The notes under the pieces are model-generated. The model searched no databases and had not been told where the DNA came from. It saw only the letters and a list, made by a program, of their open reading frames with translations. A DNA stretch of 64,000 bases from Aeromicrobium sp. IC_218 (GTDB lineage: Bacteria; Actinomycetota; Actinomycetes; Propionibacteriales; Nocardioidaceae), in the NCBI RefSeq assembly GCF_004336805.1, contig NZ_SJXM01000003.1:1-64000 (forward strand), written 5' to 3'. Below, one piece after another: positions 11,004-52,776 of the stretch (within the stretch, counting starts at the first letter, position 1; each line of letters begins with the position of its first letter). Position numbers and translations under genes: made by a program.

Positions 11004-11077
11004 GGGGCGGTAGCTCAGCCGGTCAGAGCAGAGGACTCATAATCCTTGGGTCGTGGGTTCGAGCCCCACCCGCCCTA
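11004..11077 (+). tRNA. tRNA-Met (CAU), elongator type
   Basis: This 74-nt cloverleaf has acceptor stem 11004-11010 pairing with 11070-11076 (one G-U pair), a D arm, the anticodon loop CTCATAA with CAU, a T arm with TTCGAGC, and discriminator A at 11077. CCA is not encoded. The GGACTCATAATCC anticodon arm resembles elongator tRNA-Met of other actinobacteria, while initiator features are absent. A tRNA-Ile2 with modified C34 would also carry CAU and cannot be fully excluded. Confidence 0.9.
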
Positions 11078-23295: not shown

Positions 23296-23369
23296 GGGCG
23301 AATAGCTCAGCTGGTCAGAGCATCCGGCTTACACCCGGAAGGTCGGGGGTTCGAGACCCTCTTCGCCCA
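23296..23369 (+). tRNA. tRNA-Val (UAC)
   Basis: This 74-nt cloverleaf has acceptor GGGCGAA (23296-23302) pairing with TTCGCCC (23362-23368), anticodon loop CTTACAC (anticodon UAC), T loop TTCGAGA and discriminator A. The CCA end is not encoded. Confidence 0.93.
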
Positions 23370-32925: not shown

Positions 32926-33330
32926 GCGAATGAGCCGGCCGGGCGGCCGCGCCGGACGCCCTCGGGCGTGCGGTGAGGAAAGTCCGGACTCCACAGAGCG
33001 CGGTGGTGGCCAACAGCCACCCACGGTGACGTGCGGGACAGTGCCACAGAGAACAGACCGCCAACGGCCTGCGCCCTCGGGTGCAGGTGCGGGCAAGGGT
33101 GAAACGGTGAGGTAAGAGCTCACCAGCGGCCTCGGTGACGGGGCCGGCTCGGTAAACCCCACCGGGAGCTAGACCAAGAGGGCGCCTCGGCGCCTGCGCT
33201 GACGGGCTGCTCGTCCACGGGTCAGCGGGTAGGTCGCACCGAGCGGCGCAGCGATGCGCCGCCCAGATGGATGGTCGCCCAGCGCCTTCGGGCGTGGACA
33301 GAATCCGGCTTACAGGCCGGCTCATTCGCC
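32926..33330 (+). ncRNA. rnpB: RNase P RNA, bacterial class A
   Basis: The catalytic RNA that matures tRNA 5' ends. The 5' and 3' ends pair over 15 bases (32926-32940 with 33315-33329). The conserved core elements are present: GAGGAAAGTCCGGACTCCACAG near the 5' end (32972-32993), GGTGAAACGGTGAGGTAAGAGC-like P10-P12 region, and AGACCAAGAGGG, with ACAGAATCCGGCTTAC at the 3' side (33298-33313). About 405 nt, normal for actinobacteria. Confidence 0.95.
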
Positions 33331-44832: not shown

Positions 44833-45687
44833 ATGCGATCCTTCCTCGTCGCCCTGCTGGTCGTCGGTGCGCTCGCGGCGCCGCAGACACCCGCGCTCGC
44901 CGAGGAGGCCGAGCCCACCCCGGCCGTCCGCAACCTGGCCGCTCCCACGGTGGCCGGCACGGCCGCCTACGGGCGCACGCTCGCCGTGCGACCGGGACGC
45001 TGGACCGAGGGCGCGCGGCTCTCGTACCGGTGGCTGCGCGACGGGCGGCCCATCGGCGGTGCCCAGGCGACCCGCTACCGGGTGAAGCCCCAGGACGTCG
45101 GCCGCCGGCTCGCGGTGCGCGTGACGGGCTCGCGGGCCGGCCACCGCTCGACGTCCGTGACGACCGCCCCCACGCGCACCGTGCAGCACATGGTGCCCGC
45201 CCGCCGGGTGGTCACCTACAGCGTCCGCACCAAGGGACGCATCAAGGCCGACCTGCGCGAGTTCAAGCGGCTGGCCCAGCAGACGTTCGACGACGCCCGC
45301 GGCTGGCGGACGTCCGGCACGGTGTTCCGCCGGGTCAAGCGGGGCGGCGACTTCACCCTCTACCTGGCCGCGTCGCGGACGCTGCCGTCGTTCTCGTCCG
45401 TCTGCAGCCGGCAGTGGAGCTGCCGCGCCGGACGCCACGTGGTCATCAACCAGACCCGGTGGCTGTACGCCAGCCCGGCCTGGCGGCGCAGCGGCGGCTC
45501 GCTGCGCGACTACCGGCACATGGTGGTGAACCACGAGACCGGGCACTGGCTGGGCCACGGCCACCGGTCCTGCCCCCGCAGAGGCGGGCCGGCGCCGGTG
45601 ATGATGCAGCAGTCCAAGGGTCTCGGCGGGTGCGAGTTCAACCCGTGGCCGCGACCGGGCGAGCGGCGGGTGCCGCGCTTCGGCTAG
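44833..45687 (+). CDS. Secreted DUF3152 putative metalloprotease
   Basis: This 284-aa protein has a signal peptide (1-23, cleavage after ALA), an Ig-like module (~35-110) of the kind in which RYRVKPQDVGRRL occurs, and a C-terminal DUF3152 domain (~125-284). The domain contains HETGHWLGHGH, a full HExxHxxGxxH zinc motif, and Cys residues that may form disulfides. It would act outside the membrane. The substrate is unknown. Its stop shares CTAG with the convergent methyltransferase. Confidence 0.88.
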   Translation: MRSFLVALLVVGALAAPQTPALAEEAEPTPAVRNLAAPTVAGTAAYGRTLAVRPGRWTEGARLSYRWLRDGRPIGGAQATRYRVKPQDVGRRLAVRVTGSRAGHRSTSVTTAPTRTVQHMVPARRVVTYSVRTKGRIKADLREFKRLAQQTFDDARGWRTSGTVFRRVKRGGDFTLYLAASRTLPSFSSVCSRQWSCRAGRHVVINQTRWLYASPAWRRSGGSLRDYRHMVVNHETGHWLGHGHRSCPRRGGPAPVMMQQSKGLGGCEFNPWPRPGERRVPRFG

Positions 45688-46928
45688 GCCGGACGCTCCA
45701 TGCGCAGCTGCACGACGTCCAGGTAGCCGACGGCGAACCCGGCCTCGCAGTAGGCGAGGTACAGCTCCCACATGCGGCGGAACGTCTCGTCGAAGCCGGC
45801 CGCGCGCACCTCGTCCGCGTGGCCGATGAAGCGCTCGCGCCACAGCCGCAGGGTGCGGGCGTAGTCGGTGCCCAGCGGACGCCGCCGGGTGACCCGCAGG
45901 GCGGTGTGCGCCCGCAGCACGTCGTCGACGGCCCGTTCGGACGGGATGAGGCCGCCGGGGAAGACGTACTTCTGGATCCACCCGTACGAGTGCCGCGTCG
46001 CGAGGTAGCGGTCGTGCGCCATGGTGATGGCCTGGATCGCCACGGTGCCGCCGGGCGCGAGGACGCGGTCGATCGTGGCGAAGTAGGTGGGCCAGAACTC
46101 CTCGCCGACCGCCTCGATCATCTCGACGCTGACGACGGCGTCGTACTCGCCGTCGACCTCGCGGTAGTCCTGCAGGCGGATCTCCACGCGGTCGTCGACC
46201 TCGGCGAGGGCGACGCGCTCGCGGGCCAGCTCGGCCTGCTCGGTGGAGATGGTGATGCTCGTGACCTGGGCGCCGCGGCGAGCCGCGCGGATGGCCAGCG
46301 CGCCCCAGCCGGTGCCGATCTCCAGGACGCGCGAGCCCTCGCCGACCCGTGCGGCGTCCAGGATGGCGTCGATCTTGCGCACCTGGGCGGGCTCGAGGTC
46401 GTCGAACACCCGCGGCTCGGTCCCGTCGAAGTCGGCCGACGAGTAGGACATCGTCGGGTCCAGGAAGAGCATGAACAGCTCGTTGGACAGGTCGTAGTGG
46501 CGCTCGATGTTCGACCGTGAGCCCTCGACGCTGTTGCGCTCGGCGTGCGGGAGCCGGACGTCCACGAGCTTGCGCAGCCGCAGCAGGGGAGCGGGCACGA
46601 GGGCGGTGAGCCGCTCGGCGAACGGCGCGAGCAGCTCGGCCAGGTCGGTGCCGGGGGCGGCGCGCCAGTCGCCGGCCATGTACGCCTCGCCCAGGCCGAT
46701 CTTCGTGTCGCGGCCGAGCCGGGCGAAGAACGACGCCGGGCGCACGACCTGCAGCTCGGGGGAGTCCGGTCCGCCGGCGCCCCAGCTGGTGCCGTCGGGG
46801 AAGGTGACGCGCACGGGCACGCGGCTCACGGTCGTCCGCAGGATCGCCCTTGCCGCCCGAGCGCGGAGCGGGGTACGAGGCTCGTGGAAGAGGTCGGGCC
46901 AGCGCGTGGTGGTCAGCTGCTCGGTCAT
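45684..46928 (-). CDS. Cyclopropane-fatty-acid synthase-like SAM methyltransferase
   Basis: This 414-aa protein resembles cyclopropane-fatty-acyl-phospholipid synthases. Residues ~1-130 are the lipid-binding N-terminal region and ~135-414 the SAM-dependent part, with VLEIGTGWGALAIRAA (SAM loop), HYDLSNELF and SVEMIEAVG. It adds a methylene or methyl group to unsaturated acyl chains in membrane phospholipids. The ATG overlaps the DUF1365 stop (ATGA). It is last in a lipid-modification run with DUF1365 and a flavoprotein; that trio may yield a product other than a simple cyclopropane. Confidence 0.93.
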   Translation of the reverse strand: MTEQLTTTRWPDLFHEPRTPLRARAARAILRTTVSRVPVRVTFPDGTSWGAGGPDSPELQVVRPASFFARLGRDTKIGLGEAYMAGDWRAAPGTDLAELLAPFAERLTALVPAPLLRLRKLVDVRLPHAERNSVEGSRSNIERHYDLSNELFMLFLDPTMSYSSADFDGTEPRVFDDLEPAQVRKIDAILDAARVGEGSRVLEIGTGWGALAIRAARRGAQVTSITISTEQAELARERVALAEVDDRVEIRLQDYREVDGEYDAVVSVEMIEAVGEEFWPTYFATIDRVLAPGGTVAIQAITMAHDRYLATRHSYGWIQKYVFPGGLIPSERAVDDVLRAHTALRVTRRRPLGTDYARTLRLWRERFIGHADEVRAAGFDETFRRMWELYLAYCEAGFAVGYLDVVQLRMERPA

Positions 46929-47671
46929 CGGATCCCTTCCTGGGGGGTGTGCGGGGTGCGGGGGACGATCGGGAGACGGCGCAGCCAGAGCCGGACGCCG
47001 TGGAAGCGGATGAGCGCGCTGGTGCGCTGGGTCATGAGCGGTCGCAGCAGCGCCAGGCGGGCGAGCCGCCACGGCGTCATCCGCTCCGGGACGCCGCGGA
47101 ACGTCGCGCTGAAGGACGCCTCGGCGCCCTGGCGCAGCACGATCGCGGCGGAGACCACGTCGGGGCGGACGCGGAACTGCAGGTCGTAGCCGCCCTCGAC
47201 GGTGAAGAACGGCGAGACGTAGAGCTCCTTGTCGACCCGGTCGCGGCCCTGCTCGTCCGGACGCAGGACGTACGCGTGGCGCTCGCCGTAGGTGTTGTGC
47301 ACCTCGGCGACCAGGCAGGTCAGGCTCCCGTCCGGGGCGAACGCCCAGAACACGCTCAACGGGTCGAAGACGTGGCCCAGCACGCGGGCGTTCGCCAGCA
47401 TGACGATGCGGTGGCCGGTCAGGTCGATCCCGCGCAACGCGCAGAACCGGCGGACGTTGTCGCCGAGGGAGGCGTCCGGGTCGCCGAGGTGGTCCTCGGA
47501 CCGGAAGGTCGAGAACGCCCGCAGCGGCCAGGCCAGGCGCGGCAGGTCGTCGACGTCGACGAGCCACTGGTAGACGCGATGCCGGAAGCGGCGCGTCATC
47601 GGGGTGCGCCGGGTGTGCGACACCCAGCCGTCCACGAGGGCGGGCAGCGGCGGAAGCTCGGTCGCGGTCAC
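46925..47671 (-). CDS. DUF1365 family protein
   Basis: This 248-aa protein is a DUF1365 member: HRVYQWLVDVDDLP near the N-terminus, GHVFDPLSVFWAF in the middle and DKELYVSPFF. The family usually sits between a flavin oxidoreductase and a cyclopropane-synthase-like gene, as here. Function is unknown. Starts at GTG 47671 overlapping the flavoprotein stop (GTGA), and its stop overlaps the next ATG (ATGA), so translation of all three is coupled. Confidence 0.92.
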   Translation of the reverse strand: MTATELPPLPALVDGWVSHTRRTPMTRRFRHRVYQWLVDVDDLPRLAWPLRAFSTFRSEDHLGDPDASLGDNVRRFCALRGIDLTGHRIVMLANARVLGHVFDPLSVFWAFAPDGSLTCLVAEVHNTYGERHAYVLRPDEQGRDRVDKELYVSPFFTVEGGYDLQFRVRPDVVSAAIVLRQGAEASFSATFRGVPERMTPWRLARLALLRPLMTQRTSALIRFHGVRLWLRRLPIVPRTPHTPQEGIR

Positions 47672-48954
47672 GGGGCGTCCCAGTCGGCGCCGAGCGCGCG
47701 GGCCGCCTCGACGCCGGAGCGGCAGCCGTCCTCGTGGAACCCCCACCCGAGGTGGGCGCCGGCGAAGGCGGTGCGGTCGGTGAACAGGTCGCGCACCTGC
47801 TGCTGCGCGGCGACGGCCTCGACGGTGTAGACGGGGTGGGTGTACGTCATCCGCGCCTCGACCGTGGCCGGGTCGATGCGGTCGACGTCGTTGAGCGTCA
47901 CCAGGAACGGGCGGTCGGCGTCGAGCCCCTGGAGCCGGTCCATCGCGTACGTGACGGCGGGCGCGGCACCGCGGTGCCCGCAGGTCTCGGTGCGGTAGTT
48001 CCAGGACGCCTGCGCCTGCCGGGCGCGCGGCATGGGCGCGGGATCGCGGTGCAGCACCGTCTCGTTGCGCGAGTACCCGAACGCGCCGAGGGCGGCGGTC
48101 TCGGCGTCCGAGGGGTCCGTGAGCATCGCCAGCGCGTCGTCGGCGTGCGTGGCGACGACGACCTGGTCGACGACGTGCAGGCGGTCGTGCGCGTCGACCA
48201 GCTCGATGCCGTCGGGCTTGCGCGTGAGGTGACGGACGGCCGAGCCGACGCGGACGTCGCCGATGGCTGCGGTGACCTTGTCCACGTACGTGCGCGACCC
48301 GCCCTCGACCGTGTACCACTGCGGCGAGCCGGTGATCGACAGGAAGCCGTGGTGGCTCAGGAACTCGAACAGGTAGCGGGCGGGGTAGTCCAGCGCCGTG
48401 CCGAGGCCCGACGACCAGACGCAGGCCACGACCGGGATGGCGTAGTGGTCGACGAAGTAGGTGCCGAAGCCGTGCTCGCGCAGGAAGTCGCCGTACGTCT
48501 GCGGCTCCGCGTCGCGCTGCGGGGTCTCCAGGAGCGCGAGGGCGGCCCGCTGGAAGCGCTTCACGTCCAGCAGCATGCGCAGGAAGCGCGGGTCGGCGGC
48601 TCGTCGCTTCTGGGCGAAGATGCCCTTGAGGCCGCGTCCGCCGGCGTACTCCAGGCCGCAGCCGTCGCAGCGGATGCTCATGCTCATCTCGGTCGGGCGC
48701 ACCGGCACGTCCAGCTCGGCGAACAACCGGCGCAGCAGCGGGTACGTGCGGTCGTTGTGCACGATGAAGCCCGAGTCGACGCGATGGCTGCGGTCACCGT
48801 CGGCGACGGTGTGGGTGTGCGCGTGGCCGCCGGCCCGGTCGTCGGCCTCGAAGACGGTCACGTCGTGCGTGCGGCGCAGCAGGTACGCGGCGGTGAGGCC
48901 GGAGATGCCGGAGCCGACGACCGCGACGCGCGGCCGCGTGGGGGAGTGCGTCAT
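47668..48954 (-). CDS. FAD-dependent amine-oxidase-like flavoprotein
   Basis: This 428-aa protein has an N-terminal FAD-binding Rossmann motif (VVGSGISGLTAAYLL) and the FAD-dependent amine oxidase fold (COG2907 type). It is thought to oxidise or desaturate a lipid, or to work with the neighbouring methyltransferase. The exact reaction is unknown. The gene begins with ATG 48954 and is the first of the coupled trio with DUF1365 and the cyclopropane-synthase-like gene. Confidence 0.9.
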   Translation of the reverse strand: MTHSPTRPRVAVVGSGISGLTAAYLLRRTHDVTVFEADDRAGGHAHTHTVADGDRSHRVDSGFIVHNDRTYPLLRRLFAELDVPVRPTEMSMSIRCDGCGLEYAGGRGLKGIFAQKRRAADPRFLRMLLDVKRFQRAALALLETPQRDAEPQTYGDFLREHGFGTYFVDHYAIPVVACVWSSGLGTALDYPARYLFEFLSHHGFLSITGSPQWYTVEGGSRTYVDKVTAAIGDVRVGSAVRHLTRKPDGIELVDAHDRLHVVDQVVVATHADDALAMLTDPSDAETAALGAFGYSRNETVLHRDPAPMPRARQAQASWNYRTETCGHRGAAPAVTYAMDRLQGLDADRPFLVTLNDVDRIDPATVEARMTYTHPVYTVEAVAAQQQVRDLFTDRTAFAGAHLGWGFHEDGCRSGVEAARALGADWDAP

Positions 48955-48969
48955 GCTCCTGGTTCGAGG

Positions 48970-49182
48970 CTACGGACCGTCCGGATTGGTCGTGTCGTCC
49001 TCGTGCGCCCTGCGACGTGCCTCACGGATCTCGAACACCTCCGTGCCGAACGCGCCCAGCTCGGACGTGACGCGGCGGGCGGCGTCGAAGCAGATCGCTG
49101 CGACCCCGCCCGCCGTGCTCAACGCCGCCTCGACGTACTGCTGCAGGACGTCCTTGGTGATCTCGTGACGGCTCAGGCCCAT
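48970..49182 (-). CDS. Small helical hypothetical protein, 70 aa
   Basis: No family is recognised. It is predicted to be helical with an amphipathic or weakly hydrophobic segment (residues ~15-45) and a charged C-terminus (RRRAHEDD). It lies between the desaturase and flavoprotein genes, 4 bp after the desaturase stop, so it is probably co-transcribed with them and may take part in lipid handling. The start is ATG 49182; the first 11 codons of the longer reading overlap the desaturase gene. Confidence 0.65.
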   Translation of the reverse strand: MGLSRHEITKDVLQQYVEAALSTAGGVAAICFDAARRVTSELGAFGTEVFEIREARRRAHEDDTTNPDGP

Positions 49183-49186
49183 GCGA

Positions 49187-50476
49187 CTAGTGTGCCGCCG
49201 CCTGCTCCTGGGCACGACGCTCGGCCTCCGCCTCGCGCTTGGCCCGGCGCAGCGCCTTCGACTCCGGCGAGTTGCCGATCTTGTACGGGTCGTCGGGCTT
49301 CTTGCTCAGCTGGTGCAGCTGGGAGGCGACGCTCCACAGCTGCTTGGACAGCCGGCCGGTGTTGTAGCGCAGGTCGTACTTCTCGACCAGGCGGTGCACG
49401 TCCGCGGACACGTCGCCGTAGCGGCGCGCCGGGATGTCGGGGAACAGGTGGTGCTCGATCTGGTAGCTCAGGTTGCCGGTGAGGACGTGGAACGGCTTGC
49501 TGCCGGAGATGTTGGCCGAGCCGAGCAGCTGGCGCAGGTACCACTGGCCGCGCGTCTCGTTCTGCGCCTCCTCCTCCTTGAACGTCTCCACCTCGGCCGG
49601 GAAGTGGCCGCAGAAGATGATCAGGAAGGTCCAGATGTTGCGGATGACGTTGGCCACGAACGTGCCGGCCAGGACGAGCACCGGGGTCCACCAGGACGTG
49701 AACGGCACGAGCGCGAGCGACAGCACCGGGAAGGCCACGTAGTCCTTGACCAGCTGGCGGCGGATCTTGCGCATCGCGCGCTTCTTGCGGCCCTGGAACT
49801 CGGCCTTGTCCATGCGTCCGGCGAGGTACTCGTCGAGCTCGACGCCGTGGTACATCACGCCCCACTCGAACAGCAGCATGAGGACGAACGCGAGCGGCAG
49901 GTTGAACCGGTGGCTCGGGTACCACGGCTGCTCGGCGTCGATGCGGAACATGTTGTAGCCGATGTCCCGGTCCATGCCGTGGATGTTCGTGTAGGTGTGG
50001 TGCATGTAGTTGTGGCCGTGCTTCCACTCCTGCGCGGGGGCCACGTTGTCCCACTCGTACTTCTGGCCGTTGACCAGCGGGTCGTTCATCCAGTCGTACT
50101 GGCCGTGCATGACGTTGTGGCCGATCTCCATGTTCTCGAGGATCTTGGCCACGCCGAGCAGCAGGATGCCGGCGACGAACGCCGGCCAGAAGAACGGCAT
50201 GAACAGGCCGATGCGGCCCAGCACCTCGAAGGCGTTGCGCAGCTTGATGACCCGCCGGATGTAGTCGGCGTCGGCCTGGCCGAGGTCGTCCAGGACGCGC
50301 TGGCGCACGGTGTCCAGCTCGCGGCCGAACTCCTCCAGCTGCTCGTAGCTCATCAGGTCGGTGCCGATGGTGGCGCGCCGGTCGGTGTCGGGACCGACGA
50401 GCGGCTGCGGCGCCTTGTTGTGGTTGCTGGCGCTCAGCGGCTCGATCGGCGCGTGCTTGGTGCGGTAGTGGGACAC
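49187..50476 (-). CDS. Membrane fatty acid desaturase
   Basis: This 429-aa protein of the membrane desaturase family has about four helices and the three His boxes HNVMHGQ, HKxxHHTYTN-like HGHNYMHHTYTN, and QIEHHLFPD. It inserts a double bond into acyl-CoA or phospholipid chains using an external electron donor; the adjacent reductase-ferredoxin protein, as in mycobacterial DesA3, is the likely donor. Starts at GTG 50476 with an AGAGGAAC site and lies 13 bp after the reductase gene. Confidence 0.94.
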   Translation of the reverse strand: MSHYRTKHAPIEPLSASNHNKAPQPLVGPDTDRRATIGTDLMSYEQLEEFGRELDTVRQRVLDDLGQADADYIRRVIKLRNAFEVLGRIGLFMPFFWPAFVAGILLLGVAKILENMEIGHNVMHGQYDWMNDPLVNGQKYEWDNVAPAQEWKHGHNYMHHTYTNIHGMDRDIGYNMFRIDAEQPWYPSHRFNLPLAFVLMLLFEWGVMYHGVELDEYLAGRMDKAEFQGRKKRAMRKIRRQLVKDYVAFPVLSLALVPFTSWWTPVLVLAGTFVANVIRNIWTFLIIFCGHFPAEVETFKEEEAQNETRGQWYLRQLLGSANISGSKPFHVLTGNLSYQIEHHLFPDIPARRYGDVSADVHRLVEKYDLRYNTGRLSKQLWSVASQLHQLSKKPDDPYKIGNSPESKALRRAKREAEAERRAQEQAAAH

Positions 50477-50489
50477 GGGTCAGTTCCTC

Positions 50490-51590
50490 TCAGAGGGCCA
50501 TGCTGACGTCGCCGACGGGGACCTGGACGCAGATCTTCACGGTCTCGTCGGTGTTGGCGGCCACTTCGCCGGTGATGACGTGGCGGACGGCGCCGTGGTT
50601 CTTCTTGACGGCGCAGGTGTTGCAGACGCCCATGCGGCATCCGTAGCGGGGGGACAGGCCGGCGGACTCGGCCTGCTCCAGGATCGTGGCGCCCGAGTTG
50701 TCGGCGCTCACGGCGCTGTCCTCGAACGTGAGGGTGCCCGTGGCGTCGGCCGCGTCGAGGTCGACGCTGGGCACCTTGAAGTACTCGACGCGCAGCTGGT
50801 CGGCGGCGCCGGCTGCCTCGTACGCGTCGCGGACGGACGCGATGAGGCCCGCCGGGCCGCAGGCGTACGTGAGCGTGGTGGCGGGGTCCACGCCGAGCTG
50901 CTGGAGGTGCTCGGCGGTGAAGCGTCCGGTGAGCTCGGCGCCGGGCTCGGGCTCGCGCGTGTAGACGCGGACGACGCGGCCCAGGCCGGCCTCCTCGACG
51001 AGCGCGTCGAGCTCGGCGGTGAACATCTCGTCCTCGCGCGAGCGCGCGTAGTGCAGGAAGGTGACCTGCGGACGCGGGGTGCCGGGCTTGGCGTCGCGCA
51101 GCGTGCGCAGCATGGCCATCACCGGGGTGATGCCGCTGCCGCCGCTGAGCAGCAGCACGTGGTCGGGCAGGGTGCGGGGCAGGACGAACTCGCCGTCCGC
51201 CTGCGAAAGGTGCACGAGGGTGCCGGGCTTGAGCTCGTGGTGCAGGTACTGCGACACGTAGCCGTCCGGGTGGGCCTTGACCGACACGCTGAACGTGCGG
51301 CCGGCCCGCTTCTCGGAGCTGGAGACCGAGAAGACGCGCACGCGGCGCTTGCCCTCGACCTCGACGCCGAACTCGACGTGCTGGCCGGCGCGGAAGCCGC
51401 GCCACGCGCCGTTGGGGCGCAGCACGACCGTGCTCGCGACACCGGTCTCGCGGACGACCTCCACCACTCGCGCCCGCACCTGCGTGACGGTCCACATGGG
51501 GTGGACGTGCTCCAGGTAGTGGTCGATCGAGTGCGGCGACGTCAGCGACGCGACCGGCTTGGACGCCAGCGCGGCTCGGATCAGCCCCAT
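50490..51590 (-). CDS. Ferredoxin reductase with C-terminal 2Fe-2S domain, desaturase partner
   Basis: This 366-aa protein fuses a flavin/NAD(P) reductase (~35-260; flavin loop RVFSVSSSE, NAD loop LLSGGSGITPVMAML) to a plant-type ferredoxin domain (~285-366; iron-sulphur Cys in CRMGVCNTC and a final Cys near the C-terminus). It passes electrons from NAD(P)H to the desaturase encoded next. The ATG at 51590 has a GAGGAGA site. Its promoter carries operator 1 of the TetR regulator. Confidence 0.94.
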   Translation of the reverse strand: MGLIRAALASKPVASLTSPHSIDHYLEHVHPMWTVTQVRARVVEVVRETGVASTVVLRPNGAWRGFRAGQHVEFGVEVEGKRRVRVFSVSSSEKRAGRTFSVSVKAHPDGYVSQYLHHELKPGTLVHLSQADGEFVLPRTLPDHVLLLSGGSGITPVMAMLRTLRDAKPGTPRPQVTFLHYARSREDEMFTAELDALVEEAGLGRVVRVYTREPEPGAELTGRFTAEHLQQLGVDPATTLTYACGPAGLIASVRDAYEAAGAADQLRVEYFKVPSVDLDAADATGTLTFEDSAVSADNSGATILEQAESAGLSPRYGCRMGVCNTCAVKKNHGAVRHVITGEVAANTDETVKICVQVPVGDVSMAL

Positions 51591-51606
51591 CGTTCTCCTC
51601 GCTTCG

Positions 51607-51635
51607 AGCGTTCAGTGAACGCGTGTGCACTCCAA
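51607..51635 (-). promoter_or_regulatory. Promoter of the reductase-desaturase operon with DesT-like operator 1
   Basis: Minus-strand TTGGAG (51635-51630), a 17-bp spacer and AACGCT (51612-51607) form a promoter. The spacer contains AGTGAAC-n4-GTGCACT (51614-51631), a near-perfect match to the AGTGAAC-n4-GTTCACT type used by DesT/TetR desaturase regulators, so binding would block the promoter. Confidence 0.6.
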
Positions 51636-51690
51636 GGGTCGCACAGCGGGCCGAACGACGCAACGGCCGGACCCTGCACGAGACGGTGAT

Positions 51691-51708
51691 GGGGAACACC
51701 TGTTCACT
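51691..51708 (+). promoter_or_regulatory. DesT-like operator 2
   Basis: GGGGAAC-n4-GTTCACT is a second copy of the same pattern (5 of 7 and 7 of 7 arm matches), lying just upstream of the -10 box of the TetR gene and covering its -35 position, as expected for autoregulation. Confidence 0.5.
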
Positions 51709-51719
51709 GGGGATGCCGA

Positions 51720-51725
51720 TAGGCT
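51720..51725 (+). promoter_or_regulatory. Leaderless -10 box of the TetR regulator
   Basis: TAGGCT ends 6 nt before ATG 51732. Confidence 0.6.
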
Positions 51726-51731
51726 GGCCGC

Positions 51732-52364
51732 ATGGCGAGCCAGGGCGCCGCAGGGACGCGGCAGGAGCAGAAGGAGCGCACGCGTGAGGCCCTCATGGCC
51801 GCGGCGCTCGAGCTGAGCAGCTCGTCCGGCTTCGCCCAGATCAGCCTGCGCCAGGTCGCCCGCGCCGCCGGCGTCGTCCCGACGGCCTTCTACCGGCACT
51901 TCGAGTCGATGGACGAGCTCGGCCTGGCCCTGGTCGAGGAGTCGTTCAGCACGCTGCGGCGGATGATCCGCGAGGCGCAGCGCGACCCGCAGGTGTTCGA
52001 GAACATCATCGACGCGGCCGCCGAGGTGCTGGTCGAGGCGGTCAAGCACAGCAAGGCGCACTTCGGCTTCGTGGCGCGCGAGCGCGTCGGGGGGTCGCCG
52101 GTCGTCCGGCAGGCCATCCGGCACGAGCTGGAGCTGTTCGAGAGCGAGCTGGCCGTGGTGCTGGCCAAGCTGCCGCACATCGAGCGCTGGCACAGCGACG
52201 ACGTGCACATGGTGTCGCGGCTGTTCGTCCGCAACATGGTCTCCAACGCCGAGGAGGTCGTCGAGATGCCTGACGGCCGGCCCGACCTGGAGGCGCGCAT
52301 CAAGGAGGGCGCCCGGCGCCAGATGCGCCTGATAGTCCTGGGGTTCGAGAAGTGGCGGTCCTAG
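51732..52364 (+). CDS. TetR-family regulator of fatty acid desaturation (DesT/FasR-like)
   Basis: This 210-aa protein has an N-terminal TetR helix-turn-helix (~15-62, with ISLRQVARAAGVVPTAFYRHF) and a C-terminal ligand domain of the DesT type. It is divergent from the reductase-desaturase genes and two operator-like repeats lie between them. By analogy with DesT it would sense acyl-CoA saturation and repress the desaturase when unsaturated chains suffice. The ligand is inferred, not seen. Confidence 0.9.
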   Translation: MASQGAAGTRQEQKERTREALMAAALELSSSSGFAQISLRQVARAAGVVPTAFYRHFESMDELGLALVEESFSTLRRMIREAQRDPQVFENIIDAAAEVLVEAVKHSKAHFGFVARERVGGSPVVRQAIRHELELFESELAVVLAKLPHIERWHSDDVHMVSRLFVRNMVSNAEEVVEMPDGRPDLEARIKEGARRQMRLIVLGFEKWRS

Positions 52365-52380: not shown

Positions 52381-52776
52381 TCAGCGGGTCGGGACCTGGG
52401 CGTCCTGCGCCGTGGTCGCCAGCTGGTCCAGCGCGACGTCGAAGACGTCGTCGCCGAGCTTGTCCTCGAGCTCGTCCTGCTGCTCGGGCGCGGCGTCGAC
52501 GTCGGCCTCCCACGTGACGTACGCGGTGGAGTGCCCGTTGTCGCGCACCGTGATGGTGGCGGTGTGGTCGACGATGCTGAACGGCGGCTCGGGCATCGTG
52601 TAGCGCAGGCTCATCGCCGCGTCGTCACGCTCCACCACGGTGACGACCAGCTCGGCGGACGTCTCGGGGCCGCCCGTGTAGTGCGCGAGCTTGGGGTGCC
52701 ACAGCGAGAAGTCGCAGGCCAGCTTCCACACGTCCTCGGCGGGGGCGGCGACGAACGTACGACGGGTGATGCGCAT
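52381..52776 (-). CDS. SRPBCC-fold protein
   Basis: This 131-aa START/polyketide-cyclase-like protein has the SRPBCC pattern of an N-terminal strand with FVAAPAEDVWKLACDF, repeated antiparallel strands, and a C-terminal long helix. Such proteins bind hydrophobic ligands; there is no catalytic residue set to assign. Starts at ATG 52776 with a GGAGG-like site upstream. Confidence 0.85.
   Translation of the reverse strand: MRITRRTFVAAPAEDVWKLACDFSLWHPKLAHYTGGPETSAELVVTVVERDDAAMSLRYTMPEPPFSIVDHTATITVRDNGHSTAYVTWEADVDAAPEQQDELEDKLGDDVFDVALDQLATTAQDAQVPTR

What the first reader, a model, noticed from the sequence alone, without database searches (positions are those of the whole stretch)
45684..52364. 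Six-gene lipid-modification block under a DesT-like regulator
Reductase, desaturase, a 70-aa unknown, flavoprotein, DUF1365 and cyclopropane-synthase-like genes run without a break on the minus strand, opposite a TetR regulator. Two AGTGAAC-n4-GTTCACT-type sites lie between them, one between -35 and -10 of the desaturase operon. Desaturation and methyl addition may be switched together.
Basis: partly seen in the sequence, partly recalled or inferred. Interest (0 to 1): 0.6.

Follow-up and report, generated by a model that had tools for sequence, protein, structure and literature searches.

The report
Desaturase operon with furan-fatty-acid-type genes
In this actinobacterium (Aeromicrobium), genes resembling those that make protective furan fatty acids sit in the same gene row as a fat-desaturating enzyme, facing a lipid-sensing type of repressor rather than the stress switch often found beside such genes.

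Summary
The block is real: six minus-strand genes (45684-51590; gaps 13, 4, 15 nt, then two 4-nt overlaps) face a TetR gene (51732-52364). The regulator reading holds: DesT is the best solved relative (2.7e-35; next 9.4e-9), the operator matches the printed E. coli FabR box at 14 of 18 bases, and 51 of 55 exact operator places in 49 genus genomes lie at desaturase loci. Comparison puts site 1 just after the -10, over the likely start, not between -35 and -10. 'Cyclopropane synthase' is probably wrong: Ser and Gln replace E. coli Cfa Cys139 and His266, as in ECF-sigma-linked homologues, and its partner genes are of the UfaD and UfaO (furan fatty acid) types. A bfaAB-like pair (tuberculostearate) lies elsewhere. 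In 20 sampled family loci outside the genus the trio sits near SigK in 8, photolyase in 5 more, a desaturase in 1. Desaturase-linked trios form one clade (99/97), so one joining event suffices. Against a general joint switch: five relatives have long gaps with hairpins between the halves, and one has the trio facing TetR with no operator. Product, ligand and transcript are untested. New variant of known kinds.

The parts
51732..52364 (+). TetR-family regulator, DesT/FabR-like
   Evidence: TetR_N; DesT 3lsj E 2.7e-35; FabR model 126.4 bits, under its cut-off of 151
51691..51708 (+). operator-like site 2, near the regulator's own start (the likely -10 TAGGCT is at 51720-51725)
   Evidence: 2 mismatches; 25 of 49 genus rows have a comparable second site; promoter read by eye
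51635..51663 (-). inferred promoter of the reductase-desaturase operon: TTGCGT, 17 nt, GACCCT
   Evidence: TTG at the same distance in 55 of 55 rows with a good site; weak consensus match, not found by the scan
51614..51631 (-). operator site 1, just downstream of the inferred -10, over the likely start
   Evidence: 55 of 62 rows score at least 11 of 14; 14 of 18 to the printed FabR box
50490..51590 (-). FAD/NAD reductase with 2Fe-2S domain, likely electron donor of the desaturase
   Evidence: NAD_binding_1, FAD_binding_6, Fer2
49187..50476 (-). membrane fatty acid desaturase
   Evidence: FA_desaturase 4.3e-31; the only match of this query in the genome
48970..49182 (-). 70-aa protein, one predicted long helix, travels with the desaturase
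   Evidence: 36 rows aligned; model pLDDT 78.7; no Pfam match for the window member
47668..48954 (-). flavoprotein, UfaD-type
   Evidence: Amino_oxidase 1.9e-26; 47% to the SigK-linked and 42-43% to the ECF-sigma-linked homologues
46925..47671 (-). DUF1365 protein, UfaO-type
   Evidence: PF07103 6.3e-62; UfaO is a DUF1365 protein (PMC7380195)
45684..46928 (-). CMAS-fold methyltransferase, UfaM-type
   Evidence: CMAS 2.4e-84; Ser and Gln at the places of Cfa Cys139 and His266

Best explanation
A DesT/FabR-type TetR protein represses a divergent reductase-desaturase operon and probably itself. In this Aeromicrobium lineage the operon carries a downstream UfaM-UfaD-UfaO-type trio. Shown from sequence: gene order, operator conservation, operator mostly confined to desaturase loci, changed active-site residues, one clade of desaturase-linked trios. 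Inferred: long-chain acyl-CoA changes repression; the six genes form one transcript here; the desaturase, fed by the reductase, makes unsaturated chains; the methyltransferase adds a methyl at the double bond and leaves the bond shifted; the flavoprotein makes a methylated diene; the DUF1365 protein adds oxygen to give a methylated furan fatty acid. The double bond and its further conversion would then be switched by one repressor and not by an ECF sigma factor.
For: DesT best solved relative. Of 55 exact operator places in 49 genus genomes 38 are at tetR-linked loci and 13 within about 1.2 kb of, or directly before, a second reductase-desaturase pair; reversed control 1 hit in all (sorted by hand). 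FabR box match 14 of 18 and, in Shewanella desA, a similar box starting at the predicted start base. Gaps of 41 nt or less between desaturase and 70-aa gene in 20 of 25 genus rows. Ser/Ala and Gln at the Cfa Cys139 and His266 places in all 30 genus rows aligned and Ser and Gln in the three named homologues. UfaM, UfaD and UfaO chemistry in PMC7380195 (passages). bfaAB-like pair elsewhere in this genome. One clade of desaturase-linked trios, 99/97. In G024 and G027 the methyltransferase stays in the desaturase operon while flavoprotein and DUF1365 genes lie with SigK, as if one pathway were split.
Against: No lipid or expression data. The trio was not compared with the R. sphaeroides or R. palustris enzymes themselves, only with ECF-sigma- and SigK-linked homologues. 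Ser and Gln also occur in another CMAS-fold protein of this genome (L127), so the pattern is not proof of UfaM. Five relatives have hairpins in long gaps between desaturase and 70-aa gene; L152 has a hairpin and a possible promoter before the flavoprotein, a different TetR and a different palindrome; L066 has the trio facing TetR with no operator. 8 of 40 scorable loci have the desaturase pair alone. The window's -10 is weak.
Confidence: 0.5

Rival explanations
1. Two units side by side: TetR controls reductase-desaturase (with the 70-aa gene), while the trio has its own promoter and signal.
For: Hairpins in long gaps in L043 and L076-L079 and L152, by eye; trio without operator in L066.
Against: In the window the gap is 4 nt and the next 15 nt, with no promoter- or terminator-like site on the minus strand in the block; 20 of 25 genus rows have gaps of 41 nt or less.
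Confidence: 0.25
2. The methyltransferase, flavoprotein and DUF1365 protein make another methylated or oxidised lipid, not a furan.
For: Only distant homology to trios whose products were not tested; the methyltransferase is kept without the other two at this locus in 4 of 40 scorable loci.
Against: The same three families in R. sphaeroides and R. palustris are reported to give furans (PMC7380195, passages); G024 and G027 have the other two genes at SigK loci.
Confidence: 0.2
3. Ordinary cyclopropane fatty acid synthesis next to a desaturase.
For: CMAS fold; NCBIfam best hit is a cyclopropane synthase model at 250 bits, under its cut-off of 600; 34% identity to E. coli Cfa.
Against: Ser and Gln replace Cys139 and His266; higher identity to ECF-sigma- and SigK-linked homologues (44-51%) and to a Rhodococcus one (56%).
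Confidence: 0.05
4. Tuberculostearate (10-methyl) synthesis.
For: Such acids occur in a variety of actinobacteria (PMC7791843, passages).
Against: A FAD_binding_4 plus CMAS pair of the bfaAB kind lies on another contig, its methyltransferase keeps Cys and His, and the flavoprotein here is Amino_oxidase type.
Confidence: 0.03

Closest known systems
DesT-desBC (Pseudomonas aeruginosa) and FabR-desA (Shewanella oneidensis)
   Same: TetR repressor divergent from a desaturase gene; DesT is the best solved relative; similar 18-bp box, starting at the predicted start base in Shewanella (PMC4273635, passages)
   Different: No methyltransferase, flavoprotein or DUF1365 genes mentioned in the passages seen; ligand response not tested here; score under the FabR model's cut-off
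MadR of mycobacteria
   Same: TetR repressor of desaturase genes, relieved by saturated C16-C24 acyl-CoA, likened to DesT by its authors (PMC8872791, abstract and passages)
   Different: Acts on desA1/desA2; printed site consensus TCTGTGxxxxxxxGT differs from the box here
UfaM-UfaD-UfaO furan fatty acid pathway (R. sphaeroides, R. palustris)
   Same: SAM methyltransferase, flavoprotein and DUF1365 protein (PMC7380195, passages)
   Different: There tied to the singlet-oxygen (ChrR) response; here in a desaturase operon; the enzymes themselves were not aligned
SigK-linked flavoprotein-DUF1365-methyltransferase loci (Tsukamurella; Nocardioidaceae)
   Same: Homologous trio in the same order
   Different: SigK and, in all but one of the 8 family cases, anti-SigK matches beside it; no desaturase in the stretches seen
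BfaAB
   Same: CMAS-fold methyltransferase acting on unsaturated chains (PMC7791843)
   Different: Different flavoprotein family; a BfaAB-like pair exists elsewhere in this genome

Membership tests
DesT/FabR-type regulators | TetR DNA-binding domain and full-length similarity to DesT | tested here: met
   TetR_N; residues 7-209 align to DesT, 2.7e-35
DesT/FabR-type regulators | NCBIfam FabR equivalog cut-off | tested here: not met
   126.4 bits against 151; so called DesT/FabR-like, not FabR
DesT/FabR-type regulators | divergent from a desaturase gene set | tested here: met
   window and relatives
DesT/FabR-type regulators | FabR-like 18-bp box at the promoter | tested here: met
   14 of 18; conserved
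DesT/FabR-type regulators | DNA binding that answers to acyl-CoA | not testable with these tools
   needs EMSA
Furan fatty acid pathway (UfaM/D/O) | the three protein families together | tested here: met
Furan fatty acid pathway (UfaM/D/O) | orthology to the R. sphaeroides or R. palustris enzymes | not tested
   their sequences were not obtained; only ECF-sigma- and SigK-linked homologues compared
Furan fatty acid pathway (UfaM/D/O) | furan fatty acid made | not testable with these tools
   needs lipid analysis
Cyclopropane fatty acid synthase | Cys139 and His266 of E. coli Cfa | tested here: not met
   Ser and Gln; that these residues matter for catalysis is recalled
Cyclopropane fatty acid synthase | NCBIfam cyclopropane synthase cut-offs | tested here: not met
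   250.3 of 600 and 229 of 400 bits
BfaAB 10-methyl pathway | FAD_binding_4 oxidoreductase beside the methyltransferase | tested here: not met
   Amino_oxidase here; FAD_binding_4 pair elsewhere

The most novel reading that the evidence does not exclude
Furan (or methyl-diene) fatty acid making has moved from a stress-sigma switch to a membrane-composition switch: an acyl-CoA-sensing repressor turns on both the making of double bonds and their conversion into oxidation-scavenging lipids, so protection rises with unsaturation and not only after damage. The 70-aa helix would be a new desaturase partner.
Probability: 0.28. Interest if true: 0.6.

Novelty: new variant of a known kind. Interest (0 to 1): 0.45.

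Why it matters
In the paper read here, bacterial furan fatty acids are tied to singlet-oxygen stress (PMC7380195, passages). A lineage in which the same enzyme types sit in a desaturase operon would let one test whether these lipids serve everyday membrane upkeep, with full, split and absent versions in sister species for comparison. It also suggests that some 'cyclopropane synthase' names are wrong where Ser and Gln stand at the two active-site places, and it extends a FabR-like box, with its position at the start site, to actinobacteria.

Tried and rejected
Cyclopropane and 10-methyl readings: set aside on active-site residues and on the separate bfaAB-like pair. A wider regulon: 4 of 55 exact operator places in 49 genus genomes are not at reductase-desaturase loci (G026:C78, G003:C42, G015:C120, G046:C8). 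The frame next to the first looked like a fatty acid synthase start by eye, but Pfam gave nothing, so all four stay unexplained. In the window's own genome looser matches (27 forward, control 17) are near chance, and the third place within 2 mismatches (C24) has none of the query genes near it. Naming the 70-aa protein: three Pfam families each matched one of 7 members weakly (best 0.0097); PDB profile search best E 0.22; a fold search was not run because a lone helix would match much. PDB searches with the desaturase (limit 0.001) and the DUF1365 protein (limit 0.1) found nothing. Searches of the paper library (8 of 10 allowed) listed no report of a desaturase operon with furan genes in actinobacteria; listings are capped and most subscription papers are missing, so this is weak evidence of novelty.
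Full report
What is there. Six genes run on the minus strand from 51590 to 45684 and face a TetR gene at 51732-52364. Gaps are 13 nt (reductase-desaturase), 4 nt (desaturase-70 aa), 15 nt (70 aa-flavoprotein), then two 4-nt overlaps; the last gene overlaps the convergent DUF3152 gene by 4 nt. Pfam: reductase with 2Fe-2S domain, FA_desaturase, none, Amino_oxidase, DUF1365, CMAS, TetR_N. The best named relative of the 70-aa protein (94% over 66 residues) is in Aeromicrobium massiliense, which places the window in or near that genus.

The regulator. DesT of Pseudomonas is the best solved relative (2.7e-35; next 9.4e-9). The NCBIfam FabR model gives 126.4 bits, below its cut-off of 151, so I write DesT/FabR-like. 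Sites 1 and 2 carry 1 and 2 mismatches. The window-wide count is not significant (13 of 100 shuffles), but 0 of 20,000 resamplings of the 141-nt gap reached the pair. Of 62 rows compared (window plus 61 loci; L034, which has the same place as L041, dropped; L038 lacks tetR), 55 have a site 1 of at least 11 of 14, 5 score 10, and 2 have none: L066, with no reductase or desaturase there, and L094, where regulator and reductase look broken. All 55, and the 5, have TTG 31-33 nt upstream of the operator, against a background of 8 of 1650 positions. The FabR box printed in PMC4273635 (passages) matches site 1 on the operon strand at 14 of 18, and there a similar box before desA starts at the predicted start base. 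Caveat: the window's own -10 is weak and the scan found no promoter. Site 2 is less conserved, 25 of 49 genus rows.

The regulon. The exact pattern AGTGAACNNNNGTNCACY occurs at 55 places in 37 of 49 genus genomes; the reversed control gave 1 hit. Sorted by hand from coordinates, 38 are at tetR-linked loci, 13 at a second reductase-desaturase pair (by distance to the desaturase match, four of them also read directly), and 4 are unexplained. The strict pattern misses variants; 12 genomes have no exact match.

Variation in the genus. Of 49 tetR loci (window, L041-L087, L094) 9 are cut or interrupted. Of the other 40, 26 have reductase, desaturase and the whole trio (20 with, 6 without a recognised 70-aa gene; the methyltransferase is split between frames in L043, and L094 is damaged); 4 have only the methyltransferase after the 70-aa gene (L048, L053, L054, L057); 1 has the 70-aa gene alone (L056); 8 have the desaturase pair alone; and 1 (L066, G008) keeps the 70-aa gene and trio facing TetR without the pair and without an operator. 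G008 still has the operator before a second pair. In G024 and G027, two of the four methyltransferase-only genomes, flavoprotein and DUF1365 genes lie with SigK and anti-SigK elsewhere; the other two were not fetched. Five named Nocardioides loci (L035-L037, L039, L040) have TetR, reductase, desaturase and 70-aa gene without the trio, so the 70-aa gene goes with the desaturase. Between desaturase and 70-aa gene, 20 of 25 genus rows have gaps of 41 nt or less; the other 5 (L043, L076-L079) have 102-128 nt with hairpins seen by eye, which speaks against one transcript there.

The trio. PMC7380195 (passages) reports UfaM, a SAM methylase of cis-vaccenate chains; UfaD, a flavoprotein making a methylated diene; and UfaO, a DUF1365 protein needed for the furan. 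The window trio is homologous to trios beside an ECF-sigma/cupin pair (Azospirillum) and SigK (Tsukamurella), to a Rhodococcus trio, and in flavoprotein and DUF1365 to a ChrR-linked pair in Phyllobacterium. At E. coli Cfa Cys139, Gly236 and His266 the window enzyme has Ser, Glu and Gln. The 30 genus rows have Ser or Ala, Glu and Gln (Glu not readable in broken L043); the three named homologues have Ser, Glu and Gln; the genome's BfaB-like protein keeps Cys, Gly and His. A third CMAS-fold protein of this genome, beside DUF1295 and photolyase genes, also has Ser, Glu and Gln, so the pattern alone does not prove UfaM. The catalytic meaning of the residues is recalled. The bfaAB-like pair (FAD_binding_4 plus CMAS) lies on another contig.

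Where the trio lives in the family. DUF1365 matches 234 of 294 genomes examined. I took 20 of the listed places outside the genus, by hand, mostly from long contigs: 8 have SigK in the stretch, 5 more photolyase, 6 neither, and 1 (L152, G053) reductase-desaturase-trio. L152 has another TetR-type gene on the same strand, a different palindrome before the reductase, and a hairpin and possible -10 before the flavoprotein (by eye). In a tree of flavoprotein plus DUF1365 (51 rows) the 24 desaturase-linked rows, including L152 and L066, form one side of a branch (99/97; 98% of bootstrap trees). One joining event is enough, and in L152 the link has outlived a change of regulator, which favours a functional tie between the enzymes.

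Mechanism. Shown: anatomy, operator pattern, residue pattern, single clade. Inferred: control by acyl-CoA (as reported for MadR and described for DesT in PMC8872791, abstract and passages), one transcript here, and the methyl, diene and furan steps. Confidence about 0.5 for the whole and about 0.85 for the regulator part alone.

The 70-aa protein. 36 rows align; among 26 genus rows the three codon positions differ at 0.18, 0.16 and 0.35 of sites. AlphaFold from 7 sequences gives one helix, residues 5-65, mean pLDDT 78.7, pTM 0.42. A surface-bound partner of the desaturase is a guess.

Verdict. The gene and site observation is right except for the promoter placement. The regulator call stands, the chemistry call should change, and the joint switch is likely here but not general. 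New variant of known kinds, interest 0.45.

Noticed in passing
L152:1150-1420 (G053): Same reductase-desaturase-trio order in another genus, but with another TetR-type gene and a different palindrome (ACCTACGCATGCGTAGGT) before the reductase.
   Followed up: partly
L146:2586-2603 (G026:C78): Perfect operator AGTGAACAAGTGTTCACT away from any desaturase match; the neighbouring frame has no Pfam match.
   Followed up: partly
L127:4939-9400 (G000:C23): Third CMAS-fold methyltransferase beside DUF1295 and photolyase genes, gene types that stand with SigK and the trio in several relatives; may be a remnant of such a locus.
   Followed up: partly
window 48970-49182: 70-aa helical protein conserved next to desaturases in Aeromicrobium and Nocardioides, without a Pfam family.
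   Followed up: partly
L094 (G033): tetR has an internal stop or frame break and reductase and desaturase are in pieces, while the trio reads whole.
   Followed up: no
L043 (G035): The methyltransferase is split between two frames.
   Followed up: no
window 52381-52776: A Polyketide_cyc2-type gene convergent with tetR, found in the same place in many relatives.
   Followed up: no
window 32931-33328, 23296-23369, 11004-11077: RNase P RNA (class A) and two tRNAs by Rfam; ordinary.
   Followed up: no
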